From assembly GCA_900318205.1 (NCBI GenBank), contig ONJS01000002.1:82689-146688 (forward strand): a DNA stretch of 64,000 bases, written 5' to 3'. The position numbers and the translations under genes are program-made. The notes below the pieces were generated by a model that saw nothing but the letters and a program-made list of their open reading frames with translations, ran no database searches and was not told where the DNA came from. Numbering within the stretch: the stretch's first letter is position 1; each line of letters starts with the position of its first letter. Positions 14,647 to 63,870 of the stretch are shown in pieces. The stretch comes from an uncultured Prevotellaceae bacterium. GTDB lineage: Bacteria > Bacteroidota > Bacteroidia > Bacteroidales > Muribaculaceae.

Positions 14647-14742
14647 TGCTCGCAGTTTATGCTCGCTGCGCGACCTGTTTAAAGTTTAGTATGTCATCCG
14701 CCTCCTGACAACTGAAAACTAAAAACTGACAACTGAAATAAC
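14647..14742 (+). repeat. Leader repeat copy, fills gap between lipoprotein gene and rsmG
   Basis: Begins at the base after the TAA and ends at the rsmG ATG. Modules in order: TGCTCGC words, TTTAAAGTTTAG, TCATCCGCCTCCTGACAACTG, then AAAACTGACAACTGAA. Confidence 0.8.
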
Positions 14743-15363: not shown

Positions 15364-15396
15364 CCATTAAACTTTAACCATTATCCTTTAAACGAT

Positions 15397-20499: not shown

Positions 20500-20569
20500 A
20501 ATAACATCTAATCTTACGGCCATTACGGCCACTCCAAGGCGAGGCCCTACACTCCTAACTTCTAACTCC
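20500..20569 (-). repeat. Second-family leader repeat (copy 1)
   Basis: Starts at the base after the rlmH stop and runs to the next start codon. On the minus strand it reads GGAGTTAGAAGTTAGG, GAGTGTAGGGCCTCGCCTTG and GAGTGGCCGT. The same words occur after nadC (21989-22079), also in the direction of transcription. Confidence 0.8.
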
Positions 20570-21043
20570 TCACTCATGATGATAGGGTTCATGCCGCAGA
20601 ATGGTGAATGCCCTGTAGAGTTGTTCGACAAAGACGAGCCTTACGAGTTCGTGAGGGAAGGTCATCTTGCTGAGCGAGATTTTCTCGTTGGCACGGTCAT
20701 ACACCTCTTGTGAAAAGCCGTAAGGGCCGCCCACGACAAACACTAGCCGCTTACTGCCGCTCGCCATGCGACGTTGCAGCCACTGGCTGTAATCTATGGA
20801 CGTTCGCTCGGTGCCGTGCTCATCGAGCAGCACAACGTAGTCGCTGGTCTCGAGGGCCGCCAGCAGCTGTTTCCCTTCAGCAACCTTTTGCTGGGCTTCG
20901 CTCATGTTGCGGGTGCTCTTCACATCACCGATGTACTGTATGTTAAAGGTGACATAGTGCTGCAACCGCTTGACGTATTCTTCAATACCTTGACGGATAA
21001 AGCCCACCTCGGTCTTGCCGATCACTGCAAGTGTAATTTTCAT
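20570..21043 (-). CDS. rlmH: 23S rRNA (pseudouridine-1915-N3)-methyltransferase
   Basis: 157 residues, the normal RlmH length. SPOUT-class methyltransferase that modifies position 1915 in helix 69 of 23S rRNA. Family signatures: VVLLDEHGTERTS near the middle, LVFVVGGPYGFSQEVY (the SAM-binding trefoil-knot loop), and LSKMTFPHELVRLVFVEQLYRAFTI at the C-terminus. It diverges from nadC with a 96-bp gap. Confidence 0.97.
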   Translation of the reverse strand: MKITLAVIGKTEVGFIRQGIEEYVKRLQHYVTFNIQYIGDVKSTRNMSEAQQKVAEGKQLLAALETSDYVVLLDEHGTERTSIDYSQWLQRRMASGSKRLVFVVGGPYGFSQEVYDRANEKISLSKMTFPHELVRLVFVEQLYRAFTILRHEPYHHE

Positions 21044-21988: not shown

Positions 21989-22079
21989 TCTCAGTGAGGA
22001 GTTAGAAAAGAGGAGTTAGGAGTGTAGGGCCTCGCCTTTGCGTGGCCGTGAAAACACCTGACGTCTAAGGTCTAAAAGA
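21989..22079 (+). repeat. Second-family leader repeat (copy 2), between nadC and the DAHP synthase gene
   Basis: Contains GTGAGGAGTTAGAA, GAGGAGTTAGGAGTGTAGGG, CCTCGCCTTTGCGTGGCCGT and CTGACGTCTAAGGTCTAAAAG, ending at the next ATG. It matches the 20500-20569 copy in inverted orientation on the chromosome but in the same orientation relative to its own downstream gene. Confidence 0.8.
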
Positions 22080-23144: not shown

Positions 23145-23317
23145 GCTTATGCGAGCTGGCGCTCGCAGTTTAATGTTAAAGAAGCGAGCTGGCGCTCGCA
23201 GTTTAAAGTTTAAAGTTTAATGAAGCATCCGCGTTCTGACAACTGACAACTAAAAACTGACAACTCAGGACTAACGTCTAAAGTCTAATGTCTGACATCT
23301 AAAGCCTAAAAAGAAAA
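23145..23317 (+). repeat. Leader repeat copy, fills gap between the DAHP synthase and SDR genes
   Basis: Two copies of GCGAGCTGGCGCTCGC, then TTTAAAGTTTAAAGTTTAATG, GAAGCATCCGCGTTCTGACA, ACTGACAACTAAAAACTGAC and a tail of (G/C)TCTAAAG-like words ending at the SDR ATG. Confidence 0.85.
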
Positions 23318-37326: not shown

Positions 37327-37440
37327 GTCAGTTTGAAGTTTTCAGTTTTCAGTTGTCAGTTTTTAGTTGTCAGTTGTCAGAAAGCAGATGCTTCTTTAAA
37401 CATTAAACTTTAAACATTAACCTGCGAGCGCCAGCTCGCA
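37327..37440 (-). repeat. Leader repeat copy, fills gap between the exonuclease gene and coaBC
   Basis: On the minus strand it begins at the base after the exonuclease TAA: TGCGAGCTGGCGCTCGCAGG, TTAATGTTTAAAGTTTAATG, GAAGCATCTGCTTTCTGACA, ACTGACAACTAAAAACTGAC, AACTGAAAACTG, ending at the coaBC ATG. Confidence 0.88.
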
Positions 37441-38223
37441 TTATCGTTTCTTGTACTGGATGTAGAGTTTGGTGATGACCTGCTTGGTGTTCTCGGCAAA
37501 GTCACTCTTCATCATCCAGTCATAGTAACCCAAATCGAGTTTGGTAAACACGTCTTCTACGGTTTTGCCCTTGTGCTTGCCGAAGTTGAAGACGGGAACC
37601 TTCTGCTCGTTATAGATGATACGGCCTGCCAAATCCACGTTACGGTTGTGGGAAGAGTATTGTGACAGGTAGTCAACATCGTTCTTCAGCGGTTCAGCGT
37701 CATTGGCATAGTGATCCAACTGAGCCTTCAGGACCTCGAGTGTCGTCTTGGCATCATCGGCTGCTGAGTGGTGATTGTCCATGGGATGTCCGCAGTAGAA
37801 GATACAGGCTGCCTCCAGGTCGCGTTTCTCACGCTTGTGGTAGATGGTCTGCACATCGATGAACTTGTGCTGCGACGGATCAAAACTGATGCCTGCCTTG
37901 CTCAGTTCCTGAGCCAGCAAGGGTATGTCAAAATGATTGCTGTTAAAGCCAGCAATGTCACAGCCTTCAAACACACGGGCAATATCGTGGGCACGTTCTT
38001 TGAAGGTGGGTTCGTTCACCAGGTCTTCATTGGTGATGTGATGGACATCAATGGCCTGCTGGGGAATCACCTTCTCGGGATTGAAACGATAAGTCTTGCT
38101 CTCTTCACGACCATCGGGATAGACCTTGACATAGGACAACTCGATGATGCGGTCCTCGGTGATATTGAGGCCGGTGGATTCCAGGTCAAAGACCACCAGA
38201 GGACGATTCAAGTTCAGTTTCAT
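37441..38223 (-). CDS. DnaQ-like 3'-5' exonuclease
   Basis: 260 residues. DEDDh exonuclease domain in the first 175 residues: VFDLESTGL (Asp, Glu), GFNSNHFDIPLL (Asp) and HHSAADDAKTT (His, Asp). The C-terminal 80 residues (PVFNFGKHKGKTVEDVF, YDWMMKSDFAENTKQV) match the extra domain seen in Bacteroidetes homologues. It could proofread or act in repair. Its position directly after dnaN fits a link with replication, but the partner polymerase is not shown by the sequence. Confidence 0.94.
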   Translation of the reverse strand: MKLNLNRPLVVFDLESTGLNITEDRIIELSYVKVYPDGREESKTYRFNPEKVIPQQAIDVHHITNEDLVNEPTFKERAHDIARVFEGCDIAGFNSNHFDIPLLAQELSKAGISFDPSQHKFIDVQTIYHKREKRDLEAACIFYCGHPMDNHHSAADDAKTTLEVLKAQLDHYANDAEPLKNDVDYLSQYSSHNRNVDLAGRIIYNEQKVPVFNFGKHKGKTVEDVFTKLDLGYYDWMMKSDFAENTKQVITKLYIQYKKR

Positions 38224-38348
38224 TTTTTCAGTTTTCAGTTGACAGTTTTCAGTTGTCAGAAAGCGGATGCTTCTTTAAACATTAAACTTTAAACTCTAAA
38301 CTGCTCGCACAGCGAGCATATAACCACTAATCTGCGAGCTTGCTCGCA
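38224..38348 (-). repeat. Leader repeat copy, fills gap between dnaN and the exonuclease gene
   Basis: On the minus strand it begins at the base after the dnaN TAA: TGCGAGCAAGCTCGCAGATT, GCTCGCTGTGCGAGC, TTTAAAGTTTAATGTTTAAAG, GAAGCATCCGCTTTCTGACA, ACTGAAAACTGTCAACTGAA, ending at the exonuclease ATG. Confidence 0.88.
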
Positions 38349-57473: not shown

Positions 57474-57809
57474 GATGGTTTAATGGTTTTAATTAACTTG
57501 GCAACATTTCAGCCATAGATACGAGCATCTAGACATAAGGTTGGCACAAGTTGTTAGTTAAACAATATCGGTTAATAAAATAGTTTCAATTCTTTCATTT
57601 CCGGGTCTTGACTTTAACGGGCATCCATGCGAGGATTTACAGCCCAGCGCCAATGCTCTGGTGAACTGCAAAGTAAATCAAAAAAAATGTCTAAAACAAA
57701 TAAAAATGGTTTAAATTTATTAACAGGTGGGTATTTTTTGTTACAACTGCAAATAATCGTGAGTCATGTGGGCGAGAGAATTAAAAAATGCAGTATCTTT
57801 GCCATTGAA
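57474..57809. other. Divergent intergenic region (336 bp) between propeller and glycosidase-like genes
   Basis: AT-rich. Apart from the -7 box at 57794-57801 for the plus-strand gene I see no convincing promoter for the minus-strand propeller gene and no credible coding sequence. The plus frame is open from about 57627, but its residues before 57810 do not look like a protein N-terminus. Confidence 0.6.
57794..57801 (+). promoter_or_regulatory. -7 element immediately before the glycosidase-like lipoprotein gene
   Basis: TATCTTTG, perfect TAnnTTTG, ending only 8 nt before the ATG at 57810, which implies a leader of a few nucleotides. Confidence 0.6.
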
Positions 57810-59978
57810 ATGCTAAGAAAAAGGATTCAGAACATTGGTATTGCACTCGCTGTACTGACGGTTGGAGTGTGTTTATTGTGGGCCTGTAGTGGTGGCAGCG
57901 AGATGAGTAGCCGTGTCATCGTCCAGAACGATACGTTCACGATGACAGGCGACAGCATTATCGAGGATACCGTGATGGCATGTGCCCACTCGCCAGAGTT
58001 CATCGAGACCAACATAACCATGTCACGCCTGGACAGCTTGTATCACCATGCCGACACGGCACGGGTGAGTTTTGTCCATGGCCGTCCGTGGAAGATAAAA
58101 CAGCCACGTCCCGTGTTGATGCCGGAATACAGCAGCAACCAGCCCCTGGTTGACGCGTTGTACAACATGTCGGTCGATCACATTACCGATGCCATGGATC
58201 CGTCAGGCCGCTTTATCGTGAGTCAGAGCAACTACAGCCGCTTGTATTGCGCTATCTTCCTCTCACTTGCCGCATTGAAGCCTCATCAGTCGATGGCAAC
58301 GCTGCGGGCGCTGGTGGACCGCGACAGCATCATCATGCAACGCGAGGGCCAGTGGCCTATCGTGAGTGACCACATCGGCTGGGCAACTGCCGCCTGGGAG
58401 GTCTATAAGACCACCGGCGACAAGCAGTGGCTTGCCTTTAGCTACCATGCCATTGAGAAAACCCTTGCCATCAACCGAGCCGTGCTGCTGGACCATAACC
58501 TGGGGCTCATCCATGGCGCTGGCTACACTACTGCCAGACCGCTGGGTGTGAGACGCATGACCTGGATGGGATATAATGATATGTTTGCCTGTATGTCGCT
58601 GGGCAACAACATCCTTACCGAAAATGCCTATGCCATCCTTGCCGAGATGGGCGAGGAATTGGGCATTGAAAACGATTATCAGAAGGATGCCCAGCGCATC
58701 AAGGATGCCATCAACCAGCACCTGTGGAACGAGGACAAGGGTTTCTACAGTTCCTTCCTCTATGGCATGGCCTACCAGCGACAGTCGCCGTTGACTGACA
58801 ACACGTCCCAGGCGATGTGCGTGCTGTGGGGTATCGCTGTGGATGACAGGGCTGAATACCTGATTGCCAACACGCCCGTGTCGGATAAGGGTGTAAACGT
58901 CAGCTATCCCCCAGGAAACGAGGTGGAGCCTTATTTTGCCAACGCGTCATGGGCAACGACCCAGGCGTTGTGGAACCTGGCAGCCGCCGAGGTGCGTAAC
59001 GAGAATGCCCTGCGCCGAGGCATGGGAGCCCTCTATCGGGCCCAAGCCCTCTATCAGTCACGCGGCATTCACCTGCGGGACTTGGAGACCGACCGTCTGG
59101 GTACCAGTGCGAGCAATGCAGCGATGATCCTGCGAGTACTCATGGGCATGCGATTTACTGCCGAGGGCATCGAACTGGCACCGATTGTCCCGAAAGGCAT
59201 GGACGGCAAGAAGACCTTCAAAGGGCTGAACTACCGTCGTGCGGTGCTGGATTTCACCATTAACGGGACCGGCAACGACATTGAATCAATCACCGATAAC
59301 GGCAAGCCCATGGAGAGCGCGTTCCTGCCCAACGATATTGAGGGCCAACACAATATCGAAATCAAACTCAAGCAAGGCAAACGTCCGAGTCAGCATGCTA
59401 CCATCCATCATGGGGAGATTATGTTGCCGATGACGCCTACCGTCGAGTGGAGTGGCGACACGGGACGTATCATCGACTTTGTTCCCGGCACGCCCTATTG
59501 CCTGATTGCCAACGGCAATACCAGTGCCATCACCGACTCGGTATTTGTGTTACCCGAGCCCGATGATGGATTGACCGAATTCTCGGTTGAGATTGAGGGA
59601 CGTCTCGTGAACAGCTTTATGTCAAAACCCTTGCTGCGCTTCGGATTAACACCTCAGATGGCCTTCCTGCCAAAGACTGAGAGTGCCGACTCGGTGATCG
59701 TCACCGTGAGTGTAGCAGAGGGTGGGGATTACCTCATTGACATCGGTTATGACCCCACGGGAACTCTTGACGTGCGTCGCCTGACGGTCAACGGACATCC
59801 CATGGGTACGCTGGTCATGGCGAGCGGCGTCAATACGGGTAGTGACGATGTGGCCTACAGCAATATGGCGATGGTGAAACTGCTCAAGGGTGAAAACGTT
59901 ATCCGCCTGGACCAAATCAGACTGCCCAAATCGTTCACACCCTGTCAGCCCGTGTATATGAGAGTCATTAAATATTAA
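57810..59978 (+). CDS. (alpha/alpha)6-barrel glycosidase-like lipoprotein
   Basis: 722 residues from the ATG at 57810, the only in-frame Met giving a lipoprotein signal (IALAVLTVGVCLLWAC, lipobox cysteine near residue 26). The central part (about 110-450) has the helix-turn patterns of six-hairpin glycosidases: GQWPIVSDHIGWATAAWEVYK, NAYAILAEMGEELG, LWNEDKGFYSSFLYG and LTDNTSQAMCVLWG. The following part (GIELAPIVPKGMDGKKTFKGLNYR) resembles the beta-sandwich that closes GH78/GH94-type enzymes. The family number and substrate are not recognisable to me. It is probably anchored to the outer membrane and acts on an oligosaccharide. Confidence 0.75.
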   Translation: MLRKRIQNIGIALAVLTVGVCLLWACSGGSEMSSRVIVQNDTFTMTGDSIIEDTVMACAHSPEFIETNITMSRLDSLYHHADTARVSFVHGRPWKIKQPRPVLMPEYSSNQPLVDALYNMSVDHITDAMDPSGRFIVSQSNYSRLYCAIFLSLAALKPHQSMATLRALVDRDSIIMQREGQWPIVSDHIGWATAAWEVYKTTGDKQWLAFSYHAIEKTLAINRAVLLDHNLGLIHGAGYTTARPLGVRRMTWMGYNDMFACMSLGNNILTENAYAILAEMGEELGIENDYQKDAQRIKDAINQHLWNEDKGFYSSFLYGMAYQRQSPLTDNTSQAMCVLWGIAVDDRAEYLIANTPVSDKGVNVSYPPGNEVEPYFANASWATTQALWNLAAAEVRNENALRRGMGALYRAQALYQSRGIHLRDLETDRLGTSASNAAMILRVLMGMRFTAEGIELAPIVPKGMDGKKTFKGLNYRRAVLDFTINGTGNDIESITDNGKPMESAFLPNDIEGQHNIEIKLKQGKRPSQHATIHHGEIMLPMTPTVEWSGDTGRIIDFVPGTPYCLIANGNTSAITDSVFVLPEPDDGLTEFSVEIEGRLVNSFMSKPLLRFGLTPQMAFLPKTESADSVIVTVSVAEGGDYLIDIGYDPTGTLDVRRLTVNGHPMGTLVMASGVNTGSDDVAYSNMAMVKLLKGENVIRLDQIRLPKSFTPCQPVYMRVIKY

Positions 59979-60179
59979 TGCGAGCGTTGCTCGCATTAGT
60001 GATTAGAGATTAGTGATTAGTGAGGCATCCGCTTTTGTGCGAGCGTTGCTCGCAGTTTAAAGTTTAATGTTTAAAGTTTAATGAAGCATCCGCATTCTGA
60101 CAACTGAGAACTGACAACTGACAACTGAAGACTGAAAACTGACAACTGAAAACCGACAACTTTAAAATATAATTAGCTT
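59979..60179 (+). repeat. Leader repeat copy (longest), fills gap between the glycosidase-like and Tricorn-like genes
   Basis: Begins at the base after the TAA: TGCGAGCGTTGCTCGCATTA, GATTAGAGATTAGTGATTAG, GCATCCGC, a second GCGAGCGTTGCTCGC, TTTAAAGTTTAATG twice, GAAGCATCCGCATTCTGACA, then at least six ACAACTGA/AAAACTGA units. Ends at the next ATG. Confidence 0.9.
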
Positions 60180-63100
60180 ATGAGAATTAAAATCTTTTTG
60201 ATGGCAGGACTTGCAGCTGCGGCGCTCACCTGCCAAGCCGATGAGGGACGCTTGCTGCGTTTCCCCGGCACCAACGGCCGCGAAGTGGCATTCAGCTATG
60301 CCGGTGACATCTACACCGTGCCCATCACGGGTGGTACGGCTCGCAAATTGACCTCCCACAAGGGCTATGAGGCCTTCGCCCGCTACAGCCCCGACGGACA
60401 GACCATCGCCTTTACTGGCCAGTATGACGGCAATACCGAGGTGTATGTCATGCCCTCACAGGGTGGTGAACCCAAGCGTATCACGTTCACTGCCACCAAT
60501 CCTCGTGACGACTGGGGCGACCGTATGGGTCCCAACAACATCACCATGGCGTGGACTCCTGACGGACGTGGCGTCATCTACCGCAACCGCATCAGTGACA
60601 GCTTTAACGGCAAACTGTGGTGTGCTCCCATTGACGGTAGCATGGCCCAGCCGCTGCCGCTGCCCGAGGGCGGTTTCTGCTGCTACAATGCCGATGGCAG
60701 CAAGTTGGCCTACAACCGTGTTTTCCGCGAATTCCGCACGTGGAAATACTACAAGGGCGGTATGGCCGACGACATCTGGATCTATGACACCCAGGCCAAG
60801 ACGGTGACCAACATCACCAACAATATTGCCCAGGACATCGACCCGATGTGGATTGGCGACGAAATCTACTATATGAGCGATCGCGACAACCGCATGAACA
60901 TCTTTGTCTATAACACCCGCACGGGTGCTACCCAGAAGGTGACCGACTTCACTGAATATGATGTGAAGTTCGCCAACTGCGGCGGCGGCAAGATCGTGTT
61001 TGAGAACGGTGGCTATCTCTATGTCCTTGACCCTGCTACCAAACGCAGCGAGAAGATTACCGTTTATCTCAACAGCGAGAACAACTTTGCCCGCGAGGAG
61101 CAGCGCAAGGTGAAGGACAACCTGACAGCCGGTAGCCTGGCTCCCGACGGCAGCCGACTGGCTATCAGTGCCCGCGGTGAGGTGTTTGACGTGCCCGCTA
61201 AGCATGGCGTGACCCGTAACATCACCCACACGCCCGGTGTCCACGAGCGCAATGCCGCTTGGAGTCCCGATGGCAAGAACATCGCCTACATCAGCGACCA
61301 GACGGGCGAGACCGAGATTTGGGTACGACCCGTGGGCAGCGACCAGGCTCGTCAGCTGACCTTTGACAACGACACCTACATCAGGGACCTGGAGTGGAGT
61401 CCCGACGGCAGCCAGATTGTCTATACCGACCGTAAGAACCGCATGGTGATGGTCAATGTCAACAGCAAAGTCGCCAACAAGAAAATCCTGCTCACCGATG
61501 AGATGGGCGAGATTCCCACGCCCAAGTTCTCACCCGACGGCAAGTGGCTGACCTATTACCGCCAAGGCCCCAACGAGTTTGGCGTGGTTTACCTCTATAA
61601 TATCGCCGAGGGTAAGGAATATCCCGTGACCGACCGCTGGTATGACAGCAACTCGCCTGTCTTCAGCAGCGATGGCAAGTACCTGATTTTTGCTTCGGCG
61701 CGCGACTTCAATCCCATCTACAGCAGCGTCGAGTGGAACTTTGCCTACCGTGACATGGAGGGCATCTACCTCGTCCTGCTGTCCAAGGACACCCCGTCTC
61801 CCTTCCTCCCCAAGGATGACCAGGTGATGGCAGGTGACGACAAGTCCAAAGAGGCTCCTAAGGATGCCCCCAAGGACAAGAAAGGCAAGGGTAAAGCCCA
61901 GGCCGACCCCAATGCCGTGCGCATCGACATCGATGGCATTGCCGATCGCATCGTCAAGGTGCCCATCGGTACCGGAGCCTACGGCAACTTCGTGTGCAAC
62001 GGCACCCACCTGTGGTACAGCGGCCGTGGCAGCGTGCGCGTGTATGACTTTGCCGAGCAGAAGGACGAGATGGTTGCCGAACGTGCCTACATGGTGCCCT
62101 CGGCTGACCTGAAGACGGCTGCCTACCTCAAGGGCGACAACGTCTATATCGCCCCCTTAGCTCCCCGCAAGGCTGACTTGAGCGAGGCAGTGAACCTGGA
62201 CGACATGATAGCTACGGTCAACTATGACCAGGAGTGGAACCAGATTTTCAACGAGGCATGGCGTGCCTATCGTGACGGCTTCTACGTGGAGACCATGCAC
62301 GGTGTGGATTGGCAGGCAATGCACGACAAATATGCCGCCTTGTTGCCCTACGTCAAGAACCGCCTGGACCTGACTTACGTCATCGGCGGCATGATCGGCG
62401 AGTTGGCAGTGGGCCACGCCTATGTTGACGGCGGTGACCACATCACCATCGACCAGCACAACATCGGTATGCTGGGTGCTGAGCTGGAGCAGGTGGCTAA
62501 CGGCTTCAAAATCACCAAAATCCTGCGTGGTGCTCCCGACCGTGAGTCGTTGCGCTCACCGCTGCTCGAGCCGGGCATGAATGTCAAGGAAGGCGACATC
62601 ATCACTGCCGTTGATGGCGTATCGGCCGCTGGCGTGAACAACATCTACACATTGCTGCGCGACAAGGCTGATGTGATGACCGAGCTGACCCTGGGCGACG
62701 GCCGCAAGGTGGTTGTCAAGCCCATCCAGAACGAGTATCCGCTCTACCACTACGAGTGGGTTCAGCACAACATCGACTATGTGAACGAGAAGACGGGTGG
62801 CCGTGTGGGCTACGTCTATATCCCCGACATGGGTCCCGAGGGCCTGCGTGAGTTCTCGCGCTATTTCTTCGCCCAGACCGACAAGGAGGCTCTTATCGTT
62901 GATGACCGCGCCAACGGTGGTGGCAACATCTCACCGATGGTGATTGAACGTCTGCTGCGTCAGCCTTACCGCTTGACGATGTTCCGCGGCAGCAACTACA
63001 ACGGCACCATTCCCGAGCGCACGCTCTACGGTCCCAAGGTGCTGCTGGTGAACAAGTATAGCGCCAGCGATGGCGACCTGTTCCCCTGGTCGTTCAAGGA

Positions 63101-63416
63101 GAACAAGTTGGGTACTGTCATCGGCACCCGTTCATGGGGCGGCATCGTGGGCATCAGCGGCTCACTGCCCTATATGGACGGTACCGACATCCGCGTGCCC
63201 TTCTTCACCAACTATGACACTCGCGGCAACTGGATTGTTGAGAACCACGGCGTGGATCCCGACATCCTCATCGACAACGACCCCGTCTTGGAGAACCAGG
63301 GTATTGACCAGCAGCTGGACAAGGCCATCGAGGTTATCCTTGAACAACTCAAGGACCGCAAGCCCATGCCCAAGACGCCTGCTCCCCGCACGATGCATGA
63401 CCTGGGCGTGGATTGA
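60180..63416 (+). CDS. Tricorn-type S41 peptidase, secreted
   Basis: 1078 residues. Signal peptide MRIKIFLMAGLAAAALTCQA. Two PD40 propeller regions fill residues about 22-300 and 300-545 (e.g. ARYSPDGQTIAFTGQYDG, AAWSPDGKNIAYISD). A Lys/Pro/Asp-rich linker lies near 556-580, and the core domains start near 680. A PDZ-like domain (about 755-840, MNVKEGDIITAVDGVSA) and the S41 catalytic domain follow, with Ser963-Asp964 in NKYSASDGD matching the Ser965/Asp966 pair of archaeal Tricorn. Tricorn degrades peptides released by larger proteases; here it probably trims peptides in the periplasm. The upstream gap is a long leader repeat. Confidence 0.93.
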   Translation: MRIKIFLMAGLAAAALTCQADEGRLLRFPGTNGREVAFSYAGDIYTVPITGGTARKLTSHKGYEAFARYSPDGQTIAFTGQYDGNTEVYVMPSQGGEPKRITFTATNPRDDWGDRMGPNNITMAWTPDGRGVIYRNRISDSFNGKLWCAPIDGSMAQPLPLPEGGFCCYNADGSKLAYNRVFREFRTWKYYKGGMADDIWIYDTQAKTVTNITNNIAQDIDPMWIGDEIYYMSDRDNRMNIFVYNTRTGATQKVTDFTEYDVKFANCGGGKIVFENGGYLYVLDPATKRSEKITVYLNSENNFAREEQRKVKDNLTAGSLAPDGSRLAISARGEVFDVPAKHGVTRNITHTPGVHERNAAWSPDGKNIAYISDQTGETEIWVRPVGSDQARQLTFDNDTYIRDLEWSPDGSQIVYTDRKNRMVMVNVNSKVANKKILLTDEMGEIPTPKFSPDGKWLTYYRQGPNEFGVVYLYNIAEGKEYPVTDRWYDSNSPVFSSDGKYLIFASARDFNPIYSSVEWNFAYRDMEGIYLVLLSKDTPSPFLPKDDQVMAGDDKSKEAPKDAPKDKKGKGKAQADPNAVRIDIDGIADRIVKVPIGTGAYGNFVCNGTHLWYSGRGSVRVYDFAEQKDEMVAERAYMVPSADLKTAAYLKGDNVYIAPLAPRKADLSEAVNLDDMIATVNYDQEWNQIFNEAWRAYRDGFYVETMHGVDWQAMHDKYAALLPYVKNRLDLTYVIGGMIGELAVGHAYVDGGDHITIDQHNIGMLGAELEQVANGFKITKILRGAPDRESLRSPLLEPGMNVKEGDIITAVDGVSAAGVNNIYTLLRDKADVMTELTLGDGRKVVVKPIQNEYPLYHYEWVQHNIDYVNEKTGGRVGYVYIPDMGPEGLREFSRYFFAQTDKEALIVDDRANGGGNISPMVIERLLRQPYRLTMFRGSNYNGTIPERTLYGPKVLLVNKYSASDGDLFPWSFKENKLGTVIGTRSWGGIVGISGSLPYMDGTDIRVPFFTNYDTRGNWIVENHGVDPDILIDNDPVLENQGIDQQLDKAIEVILEQLKDRKPMPKTPAPRTMHDLGVD

Positions 63417-63470
63417 TGCTCGCTGCGCTCGCTGATTAGTGATTAGTGAAGCATCCGCATTCTTTTAGTC
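63417..63470 (+). repeat. Leader repeat fragment after the Tricorn-like gene
   Basis: Begins at the base after the TGA: TGCTCGCTGCGCTCGCTGAT, TAGTGATTAGTGAAGCATCC, GCATTC. The AACTGACAAC part is missing and no gene follows within 500 bp. Confidence 0.75.
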
Positions 63471-63576
63471 TCACGCTAAGACGCTAAGTCGCGAAGACAT
63501 TTATTATTGCTCGCAAGAGGCTCGCAATAGTTATTTATTGCATACCCTTGCGAGCAAATTTTATACGGAAAAGCCT

Positions 63577-63655
63577 GTAGAGACGCAAAATCTTGCGTCT
63601 CCCGATAGGCGACACAATATGCTGACCCTGGAGACGCAAAATTTTGCGTCTCTAC
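63577..63655. repeat. Inverted pair of palindromic GAGACGCAAAA elements (REP-like)
   Basis: Two 26-nt copies, 63577-63602 and 63630-63655. Each is itself nearly palindromic (GAGACGCAAAA / TTTTGCGTCTC), and they are arranged as inverted repeats of one another with one difference, separated by 27 nt. Confidence 0.88.
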
Positions 63656-63870
63656 ATAGTTCGTACATCATTTTTCATCATTTTTCACCATTTTCCACAT
63701 TTTCCACACTGTTCACATGGGTGTGTGATTTCACTCTGGGGTGGGAAATTTGTGGAAAGGCACGTATATAGTGGAAAGGGTGGAAAAAGTGAAAAATGGT
63801 GGAAAGACCAACTATTATTGATGAATAAACGTGGAAAAATTGGTATTTCGCAAACTTTCATGGGAGAAAA

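What the first reader, a model, noticed from the sequence alone, without database searches (positions are those of the whole stretch)
59979..60179. Modular leader repeat that fills operon gaps exactly from stop codon to start codon
Copies lie at 14647-14742, 23145-23317, 37327-37440 (minus), 38224-38348 (minus), 59979-60179 and, truncated, 63417-63470. Module order is constant: a GCGAGC/GCTCGC inverted repeat, TTTAAAGTTTAATG words, GAAGCATCCGC, TTCTGACAACTG, then alternating ACAACTGA/AAAACTGA units up to the ATG. In five of the six the first module begins at the very next base after the upstream stop codon. All five full copies sit between co-directional genes and all point in the direction of transcription. 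That is unlike a randomly inserted REP element and suggests a translational or processing role, such as a hairpin closing one gene plus an unstructured A/C-rich ribosome landing site for the next. The unit number varies, so slippage could tune expression.
Basis: seen in the sequence. Interest (0 to 1): 0.82.

Follow-up and report, generated by a model that had tools for sequence, protein, structure and literature searches.

The report
Heptamer hairpins filling gaps between genes
Many gaps between genes of this rumen bacterium are filled by long hairpins built from seven-letter repeats that carry their own stop codons; similar repeats are known from cyanobacteria, and these look more like a spreading, fast-changing element that genes tolerate than a special switch for making proteins.

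Summary
In detail: six copies in the stated modular order, five starting right after a stop codon. But the unit is a heptamer, and the "words" (AGTTTAA, ATTAGTG, GACAACT) are 7-nt arrays forming left and right arms of imperfect hairpins, mostly capped by GAAGCATCCGC. In 764 kb of the 3.62-Mb genome I found 79 such arrays, 73 intergenic. Left-type arrays lie nearer the left gene and right-type nearer the right gene in 69 of 79, including 8 of 8 in convergent gaps. Two other genera follow the rule (15 of 18 and 8 of 8 typed arrays); one cyanobacterium shows the same arm order. So constant direction is largely inverted-repeat symmetry. Per gap, arrays are not enriched in co-directional gaps (50/418; convergent 7/70, divergent 5/67), though they are per base. 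The exact stop junction has a built-in cause: the palindrome module often begins TRA-T itself, arrays close all reading frames, and array-adjacent genes use TAG 11/24 versus 65/535. At one operon gap 5 of 35 species are filled, needing at least 3 independent changes. Best reading: a gap-filling heptad-hairpin repeat, related in kind to cyanobacterial heptanucleotide and Beggiatoaceae TAACTGA repeats, tolerated and possibly co-opted. A dedicated translation leader is not supported.

The parts
59979..60179 (+). Full gap filler between genes 57627-59978 and 60180-63416: palindrome 59979-59995, left heptad arm 59995-60023, GAGGCATCCGC 60022-60032, second palindrome 60038-60054, second left arm 60054-60081, cap GAAGCATCCGC 60083-60093, right heptad arm 60097-60160, short A/T-rich spacer to ATG 60180
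   Evidence: fold (z -1.97)
14647..14742 (+). Gap filler between a DUF3298 gene and a GidB (rsmG-like) gene: palindromes, left arm AGTTTAA, degenerate cap, right arm GACAACT up to near ATG 14743
23145..23317 (+). Gap filler between a DAHP synthase/chorismate mutase gene and a short-chain dehydrogenase gene: two palindromes, left arm, cap 23222-23232, right arms GACAACT then GTCTAAA
   Evidence: (z -3.57)
37327..37440 (-). Gap filler between an exonuclease (dnaQ-like) and a flavoprotein/DFP (coaBC-like) gene; the same gap is 18-43 nt and element-free in 30 of 34 relatives whose gap the script could delimit
38224..38348 (-). Gap filler between DNA polymerase III beta (dnaN) and the exonuclease gene
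   Evidence: (z -2.09)
63417..63470 (+). Left half only: GC palindrome, ATTAGTG heptamers, GAAGCATCCGC; followed by other repeat modules
21989..22079 (+). Further gap filler not in the finding: left arm GAGTTAG heptamers after a TAG stop, different cap, right arm GTCTAAG up to ATG 22080
   Evidence: (I8)
15364..15396 (+). Short gap made of right-type heptamers (CATTAAACTTTAACCATTATCCTTTAAACG-like) directly before ATG 15397
   Evidence: (D11)

Best explanation
Each full copy is an imperfect hairpin whose two arms are degenerate 7-nt arrays: AG(T)-type words on the left, complementary (A)CT-type words on the right, closed by a small cap (here mostly GAAGC-AUCC-GC). Copies often carry an extra GC palindrome at the outer left edge. 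The hairpins occupy the gap close to both gene edges. They appear to spread or replace spacer DNA as modules, and to change length by gain and loss of units. They are tolerated at gene borders because the palindrome module often starts with its own TRA stop codon, and because a heptamer with one stop closes all three frames within 21 nt. Their A-rich right arms give an acceptable SD-less start context in this genome. Shown: the architecture, polarity rule, gap filling, built-in stops, and differences between species. Inferred: that spread is by copying or replacement rather than growth in place, that the elements are mainly tolerated rather than selected, and the machinery, which is unknown. 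They probably act as passive spacers or hairpins in operon mRNA, with occasional co-option as leaders.
For: Lag-7 arrays: 79, of which 73 are at least 80% intergenic and 0 lie more than 60 nt inside a gene. Polarity holds in 69 of 79; neighbouring arrays within 150 nt are LR 10, LL 2, RL 1. With the same automatic typing, another genus obeys in 15 of 18 typed arrays (1 tie, 2 against, 9 further arrays untyped), a third genus in 8 of 8 (2 untyped). In a cyanobacterium, left-to-right order occurs 10 times and right-to-left 0 times within 300 nt among the first 100 of 2488 places. A convergent gap is filled stop to stop (L145 546-616). Predicted folds show short helices of 3-5 pairs in 7-nt steps, z -1.5 to -3.6. 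Built-in stops: 10 of 22 palindrome modules not at a gene stop are still preceded by a stop codon plus T, background 1.8%; all three frames closed on 132 of 158 array strands against 71.0 +/- 5.8 for column-permuted arrays; TAG at array-adjacent stops 11/24 against 65/535, p = 8e-5. Turnover: dnaQ-coaBC gap filled in 5 of 35 species, 4 changes, at least 3 forced by starred branches; a near-sister pair shows a word switch and length changes in place; within one genus AACTGANAACTGA counts range from 161, 152, 76 and 60 down to 0 in four genomes.
Against: No mobilising enzyme was identified. No clean empty-site pair with a target duplication was seen, so insertion is inferred. Hugging of starts and stops and the A-rich start context exceed chance, which a pure junk model does not require. 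Per intergenic base, array-bearing gaps are commoner among tandem genes (50 in 70.5 kb against 7 in 25.2 kb convergent and 5 in 29.8 kb divergent). RNA fold z-scores are weaker than -2 in three of five gaps. In the near-sister pair array gaps were not significantly less conserved than others (median 0.90 against 0.92, p = 0.12, n = 6 against 58). Several of the ten TRA-T modules share the preceding CCGC context and may be copies of one another. Genes were called by a home-made script, so starts are uncertain.
Confidence: 0.6

Rival explanations
1. Dedicated intercistronic translation leader: the hairpin ends one gene and the A/C-rich heptamers are the ribosome landing site of the next, tuned by unit number.
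For: Right arms within 12 nt of starts 17 against 9.2 expected; A content 0.54 against 0.39 and A at -3 0.71 against 0.49, n = 17 against 541; tandem gaps richer per base; A at -3 is a positive determinant in Bacteroidetes (Baez 2019, PMC6847099, abstract read); similar idea for Beggiatoaceae TAACTGA repeats (MacGregor 2015, PMC4679880).
Against: Same architecture in convergent gaps, which have no start; no enrichment in tandem gaps per gap; 30 of 34 relatives lack any element in the same operon gap; in another genus starts next to arrays are not enriched in A (9 starts).
Confidence: 0.15
2. RNA-level hairpin with a function in mRNA stability, partial termination or coupling: the hairpin keeps operon genes apart or brings stop and start together.
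For: Arms lie close to both gene edges and pair in predicted folds; GC palindromes sit 0-1 nt after a stop in 6 of 36 cases (9 of 44 with a looser pattern), like 3'-end stabilising hairpins.
Against: Words, caps and lengths differ between relatives and most orthologous gaps are empty; I see no U-run after the cap in the window copies; no Rfam family reaches its gathering score in the window.
Confidence: 0.2
3. REP elements moved by a REP-associated (RAYT, Y1) transposase.
For: GC-rich palindromes, dispersed and intergenic; three Y1_Tnp genes in the genome; two of the three fetched Y1 loci hold a heptad array within about 500 nt of the gene (L139 1198-1264, L140 2754-2803) and L140 also GCATCCGC/GCGGATGC motifs at 2366 and 3319.
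Against: All three Y1 genes are directly bordered by other palindromes (read) and none of the three loci holds the GC palindrome of this finding. At 79 arrays per 764 kb about one array is expected in three 3.3-kb loci, so the neighbourhood may be chance.
Confidence: 0.05

Closest known systems
TAACTGA intergenic direct repeats of marine Beggiatoaceae, cyanobacteria and five Bacteroidetes (MacGregor 2015, PMC4679880; abstract and sections 3, 7, 9, 10, 23 read)
   Same: Heptamer arrays, intergenic, many ending just before a start codon, variable unit number, patchy distribution, stop codons in the unit, shorter array-free gaps in some relatives.
   Different: There, short sets of one word (169 direct sets and one inverted pair in the main genome), said not to have a particular predicted RNA structure; here many words, arranged as two complementary arms with caps and GC palindromes, also in convergent gaps.
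Seven-nucleotide-repeat stem-loop P6b of the Nostoc trnL intron, Class I TDNGATT and Class II NNTGAGT (Kaasalainen 2015, PMC4476775; abstract and passages read)
   Same: A stem built from degenerate 7-nt motifs, gain or loss of seven-nucleotide repeats, repeated replacement of one word class by another with a similar structure.
   Different: One site inside a group I intron of cyanobacteria; here many intergenic sites in Bacteroidota.
Cyanobacterial STRR heptamers and small dispersed repeats (recalled: Mazel 1990, Vioque 1997, Costa 2002, Elhai 2008; none seen here)
   Same: Short heptamer arrays and nested small palindromic repeats between genes (recall).
   Different: Not compared in detail; arm order was only checked in one cyanobacterial genome, on the first 100 listed places.
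REP elements, GTAG/CGTC-tagged (PMC3733652; start of abstract in the listing only)
   Same: Short dispersed palindromes.
   Different: No heptad arms known to me; no Y1 gene directly bordered by these palindromes here.

Membership tests
Intergenic heptanucleotide repeat arrays (STRR/TAACTGA kind) | tandem 7-nt period, intergenic | tested here: met
   79 lag-7 arrays, 73 intergenic, in 764 kb
Intergenic heptanucleotide repeat arrays (STRR/TAACTGA kind) | the exact word TAACTGA as main unit | tested here: not met
   of the 100 listed AACTGANAACTGA places (of 161) only 2 have T at the variable position
Intergenic heptanucleotide repeat arrays (STRR/TAACTGA kind) | many arrays directly upstream of starts | tested here: met
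   17 right-type arrays within 12 nt of a start, random mean 9.2
Heptad stem-loop (trnL P6b kind) | 7-nt motifs on both sides of a stem that pair | tested here: met
   predicted folds; LR 10 against RL 1
Heptad stem-loop (trnL P6b kind) | replacement of one word class by another at the same site | tested here: met
   one near-sister gap with TTTAACC against TCCTAAT-like words (position 37552)
Heptad stem-loop (trnL P6b kind) | located in the trnL group I intron | tested here: not met
   window copies lie between protein genes
RAYT-associated REP | Y1 transposase gene bordered by the same palindromes | tested here: not met
   three Y1 loci: no GC palindrome of this kind in any, other palindromes at the borders; heptad arrays do lie within about 500 nt in two of the three
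MITE/IS derivative | terminal inverted repeats with target-site duplication | tested here: inconclusive
   a preceding TRA-T is frequent but no clean empty site was found in the gaps compared

The most novel reading that the evidence does not exclude
One class of heptad-ladder hairpin, with a fixed polarity (AG-words left, CT-words right), built-in stops and freely changing words, fills gene gaps edge to edge in Bacteroidota, cyanobacteria and others. It would be produced by an undescribed process that rewrites intergenic spacers while keeping both gene edges intact, for example hairpin-templated repair or replacement.
Probability: 0.3. Interest if true: 0.78.

Novelty: new variant of a known kind. 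Interest (0 to 1): 0.52.

Why it matters
Heptamer repeats have been described separately in cyanobacteria, Beggiatoaceae and the trnL intron. The polarity and built-in-stop rules give one testable description of them, explain why they can sit at gene borders, and show that constant orientation next to starts is not by itself evidence for a translation signal.

Tried and rejected
Octamer units: rejected, the period is 7. Translation leader as the sole purpose: weakened by convergent gaps, no tandem enrichment per gap, and empty orthologous gaps. U-rich leaders as a general feature of another genus: I first took this, but one search shows a mix (T 0.33 against 0.26, A 0.42 against 0.39, 9 starts). 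RAYT: no Y1 gene directly bordered by these palindromes, though heptad arrays lie near two of three. Reverse transcriptase: one match; no heptad array, GCATCCGC or GC palindrome in its 3.6-kb locus. Rfam: no match at gathering score in the window. The AACTGA word was followed over 198 family genomes but not correlated with any gene. The reversed-pattern control turned out to be another heptamer word (AGTCAAN), abundant in G131, G168 and G176 and present 27 times in G128, so it is no neutral control there. In the tree, 'filled' for the dnaQ-coaBC gap rests on detected arrays for the window genome, L021, L028 and L041 and on my eye for L072 (96-nt gap, no array above threshold); L048 was left out because the script could not delimit its gap. 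'Filled' labels for the dnaN-dnaQ gap were given by eye (5 changes) and I do not rest on them. The reversed pattern in the cyanobacterium is itself common (1089) and its order was not examined. Regions of G060 and G146 (5 of the 20) gave only 3 arrays and were not put through the polarity test. The random placement treats other parts of an element as free space, so it overstates the hugging somewhat. Literature: seven searches, six on heptamer or small palindromic repeats; among the listed papers MacGregor 2015, Kaasalainen 2015 and a quadruplex-repeat paper (PMC4692102, listing only) bore most on the kind; subscription papers are mostly not held.

Full report
What is there. The genome is a 3.62-Mb, 53-contig assembly. 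Its nearest named relatives, by the exonuclease gene beside two of the copies, are Bacteroidales, many from ruminants, labelled Prevotellaceae, Muribaculaceae or Bacteroidales.

The unit is seven bases. I read four contigs (764,067 bases) and scored self-match at every lag from 2 to 15. Lag 7 gave 79 arrays, lag 14 (its harmonic) 54, lag 9 26, and the rest 0 to 7; 73 of the 79 were at least 80% intergenic. None lay more than 60 nt inside a called gene. Genome-wide, AACTGANAACTGA has 161 matches against 0 for the reversed pattern.

Two arms. I called arrays left-type if richer in AGT/TAG-like words and right-type if richer in ACT/CTA-like words. On the plus strand, left-type arrays were nearer the left gene and right-type nearer the right gene in 69 of 79 cases, 8 of 8 in convergent gaps. 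On coding strands: nearest a stop, 41 left-type and 6 right-type; nearest a start, 28 right-type and 4 left-type. Neighbouring arrays within 150 nt were left-right 10 times, left-left 2, right-left 1. RNA folding of five window gaps gives short helices of three to five pairs in seven-base steps, four of the five with a GAAGCAUC(C/U)GC cap; z-scores are -1.55, -1.50, -2.09, -1.97 and -3.57. GAAGCATCCGC in the four contigs (17 of the 20 genome copies): 10 in the direction of tandem genes, 3 against, 2 in divergent and 2 in convergent gaps.

Not tied to co-directional genes per gap. Gaps with arrays: tandem 50 of 418, convergent 7 of 70, divergent 5 of 67; the differences are not significant (p = 0.84 and 0.41). 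Per intergenic base, tandem gaps do hold more (50 in 70.5 kb against 7 in 25.2 kb and 5 in 29.8 kb). Within tandem gaps the arrays hug the gene ends: right-type within 12 nt of a start 17 times (random mean 9.2) and left-type within 12 nt of a stop 18 times (random mean 9.4); no shuffle of 2000 reached either. That randomisation treats the other parts of an element as free space, so it overstates the effect somewhat.

Why they begin at the stop codon. The GC palindrome lies 0-1 nt after a stop in 6 of 36 cases, or 9 of 44 with a looser pattern. The module itself tends to start with TRA-T: 10 of 22 modules that are not at a gene stop are still preceded by a stop codon and T, background 1.8%; one place is counted on both strands, and several of the ten share a preceding CCGC, so they may be copies of one another. 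Arrays close all three frames on 132 of 158 strands; permuting the seven columns of each array gives 71.0 +/- 5.8 and never more than 89. Genes whose stop lies within 12 nt of, or inside, a left-type array use TAG in 11 of 24 cases against 65 of 535 for the others (p = 8e-5). In several genes the array starts before the stop codon, by up to 21 nt. So the repeat often supplies the stop.

Turnover. At the dnaQ-like/coaBC-like gap (names from Pfam, and recall), 34 of 35 relatives plus the window genome could be delimited. The window genome, L021, L028 and L041 hold detected arrays and L072 a 96-nt filler that I scored by eye; the other 30 relatives have gaps of 18-43 nt without arrays. The tree needs 4 changes, at least 3 forced by starred branches. 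In L072 the filler stands directly after the stop while the last bases before the start (GCATC) remain; in the window genome, L021, L028 and L041 that motif is gone. In a near-sister pair (orthologous genes median 92.9% identical) 6 of 64 compared gaps hold arrays; all 6 differ in length, whereas 26 of 58 others are equal, and one gap has switched words. Overall identity of array gaps was not significantly lower (0.90 against 0.92, p = 0.12).

Elsewhere. In 198 genomes of the family, 66 have at least one AACTGANAACTGA match, but large numbers occur in few; four congeners have none. Genomes of two other genera carry another word, AGTCAAN, in large numbers. In stretches of one of these genera that were chosen for holding that word, 15 of 18 automatically typed arrays obey the left/right rule, 1 is a tie and 2 go against it; 9 more, of AATGAAA/TTTCATT type, cannot be typed by the AGT/ACT rule, but where they come in pairs the AATG arm is on the left. 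One convergent gap is filled from stop to stop (L145 546-616). In a third genus 8 of 8 typed arrays obey and 2 are untyped. In a cyanobacterium (record title Amazonocrinis), AGT at four successive 7-nt steps occurs 2488 times against 1089 for the reversed pattern; among the first 100 listed places a left arm is followed by a right arm within 300 nt ten times and the reverse never.

Function. In the window genome, starts beside right-type arrays are A-rich (0.54 against 0.39) and have A at -3 in 71% against 49% (17 against 541 starts), which fits the SD-less initiation reported for Bacteroidetes (PMC6847099, abstract). This supports compatibility, not necessity: in the other genus starts next to arrays are not enriched in A (0.42 against 0.39, 9 starts), and most relatives have no element in the dnaQ-coaBC gap. 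I found no machine. The three Y1 transposase genes are bordered by other palindromes and their loci hold no GC palindrome of this kind, though two of the three have a heptad array within about 500 nt, about what the genome density could give. The one reverse transcriptase locus shows none of the modules.

Known kinds. MacGregor 2015 (PMC4679880) described TAACTGA direct repeats before starts in Beggiatoaceae, and in cyanobacteria and five Bacteroidetes, and proposed a translational role in the first. Kaasalainen 2015 (PMC4476775) describes the trnL P6b stem built of seven-nucleotide motifs, with repeated replacement of one class by another. The present elements join these two pictures. I therefore call them a new variant of a known kind.

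Noticed in passing
window 63576-63659: Pair of GAGACGCAAAA/TTTTGCGTCTC palindromes; the 11-mer GAGACGCAAAA occurs 21 times in intergenic DNA of the four contigs. A further dispersed repeat, looking like cyanobacterial ones from recall.
   Followed up: no
window 63470-63560: CTCACGCTAAGACGCTAAG module followed by TTGCTCGCAAGAGGCTCGCAA; in some other gaps such modules appear nested between CATCCGC and GCGGATG, mirrored on the other side, as if modules insert into each other's centre.
   Followed up: partly
L117 9611-10086 (C30:169611-170086): A left heptad arm and a right heptad arm about 400 nt apart with a 125-aa ORF between them, so a hairpin loop that carries an ORF; from recall it resembles small four-helix-bundle proteins.
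   Followed up: no
window 20525-20575 and 21999-22049: 51-nt inverted pair (84%) with CTCCTAA heptamers and a GGCGAGGCCCTACA head, on either side of a quinolinate phosphoribosyltransferase-domain gene.
   Followed up: partly
four contigs of the genome: Lag-9 arrays are the next most frequent class after lag 7 and its harmonic (26, of which 23 intergenic); not examined.
   Followed up: no
L095: A cyanobacterial contig (record title Amazonocrinis) holds a relative (45% identity) of the window's Bacteroidales exonuclease, perhaps gene transfer between two phyla that share heptamer repeats.
   Followed up: no
L139 1198-1264 and L140 2754-2803: Heptad arrays within about 500 nt of two of the genome's three Y1 transposase genes.
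   Followed up: partly
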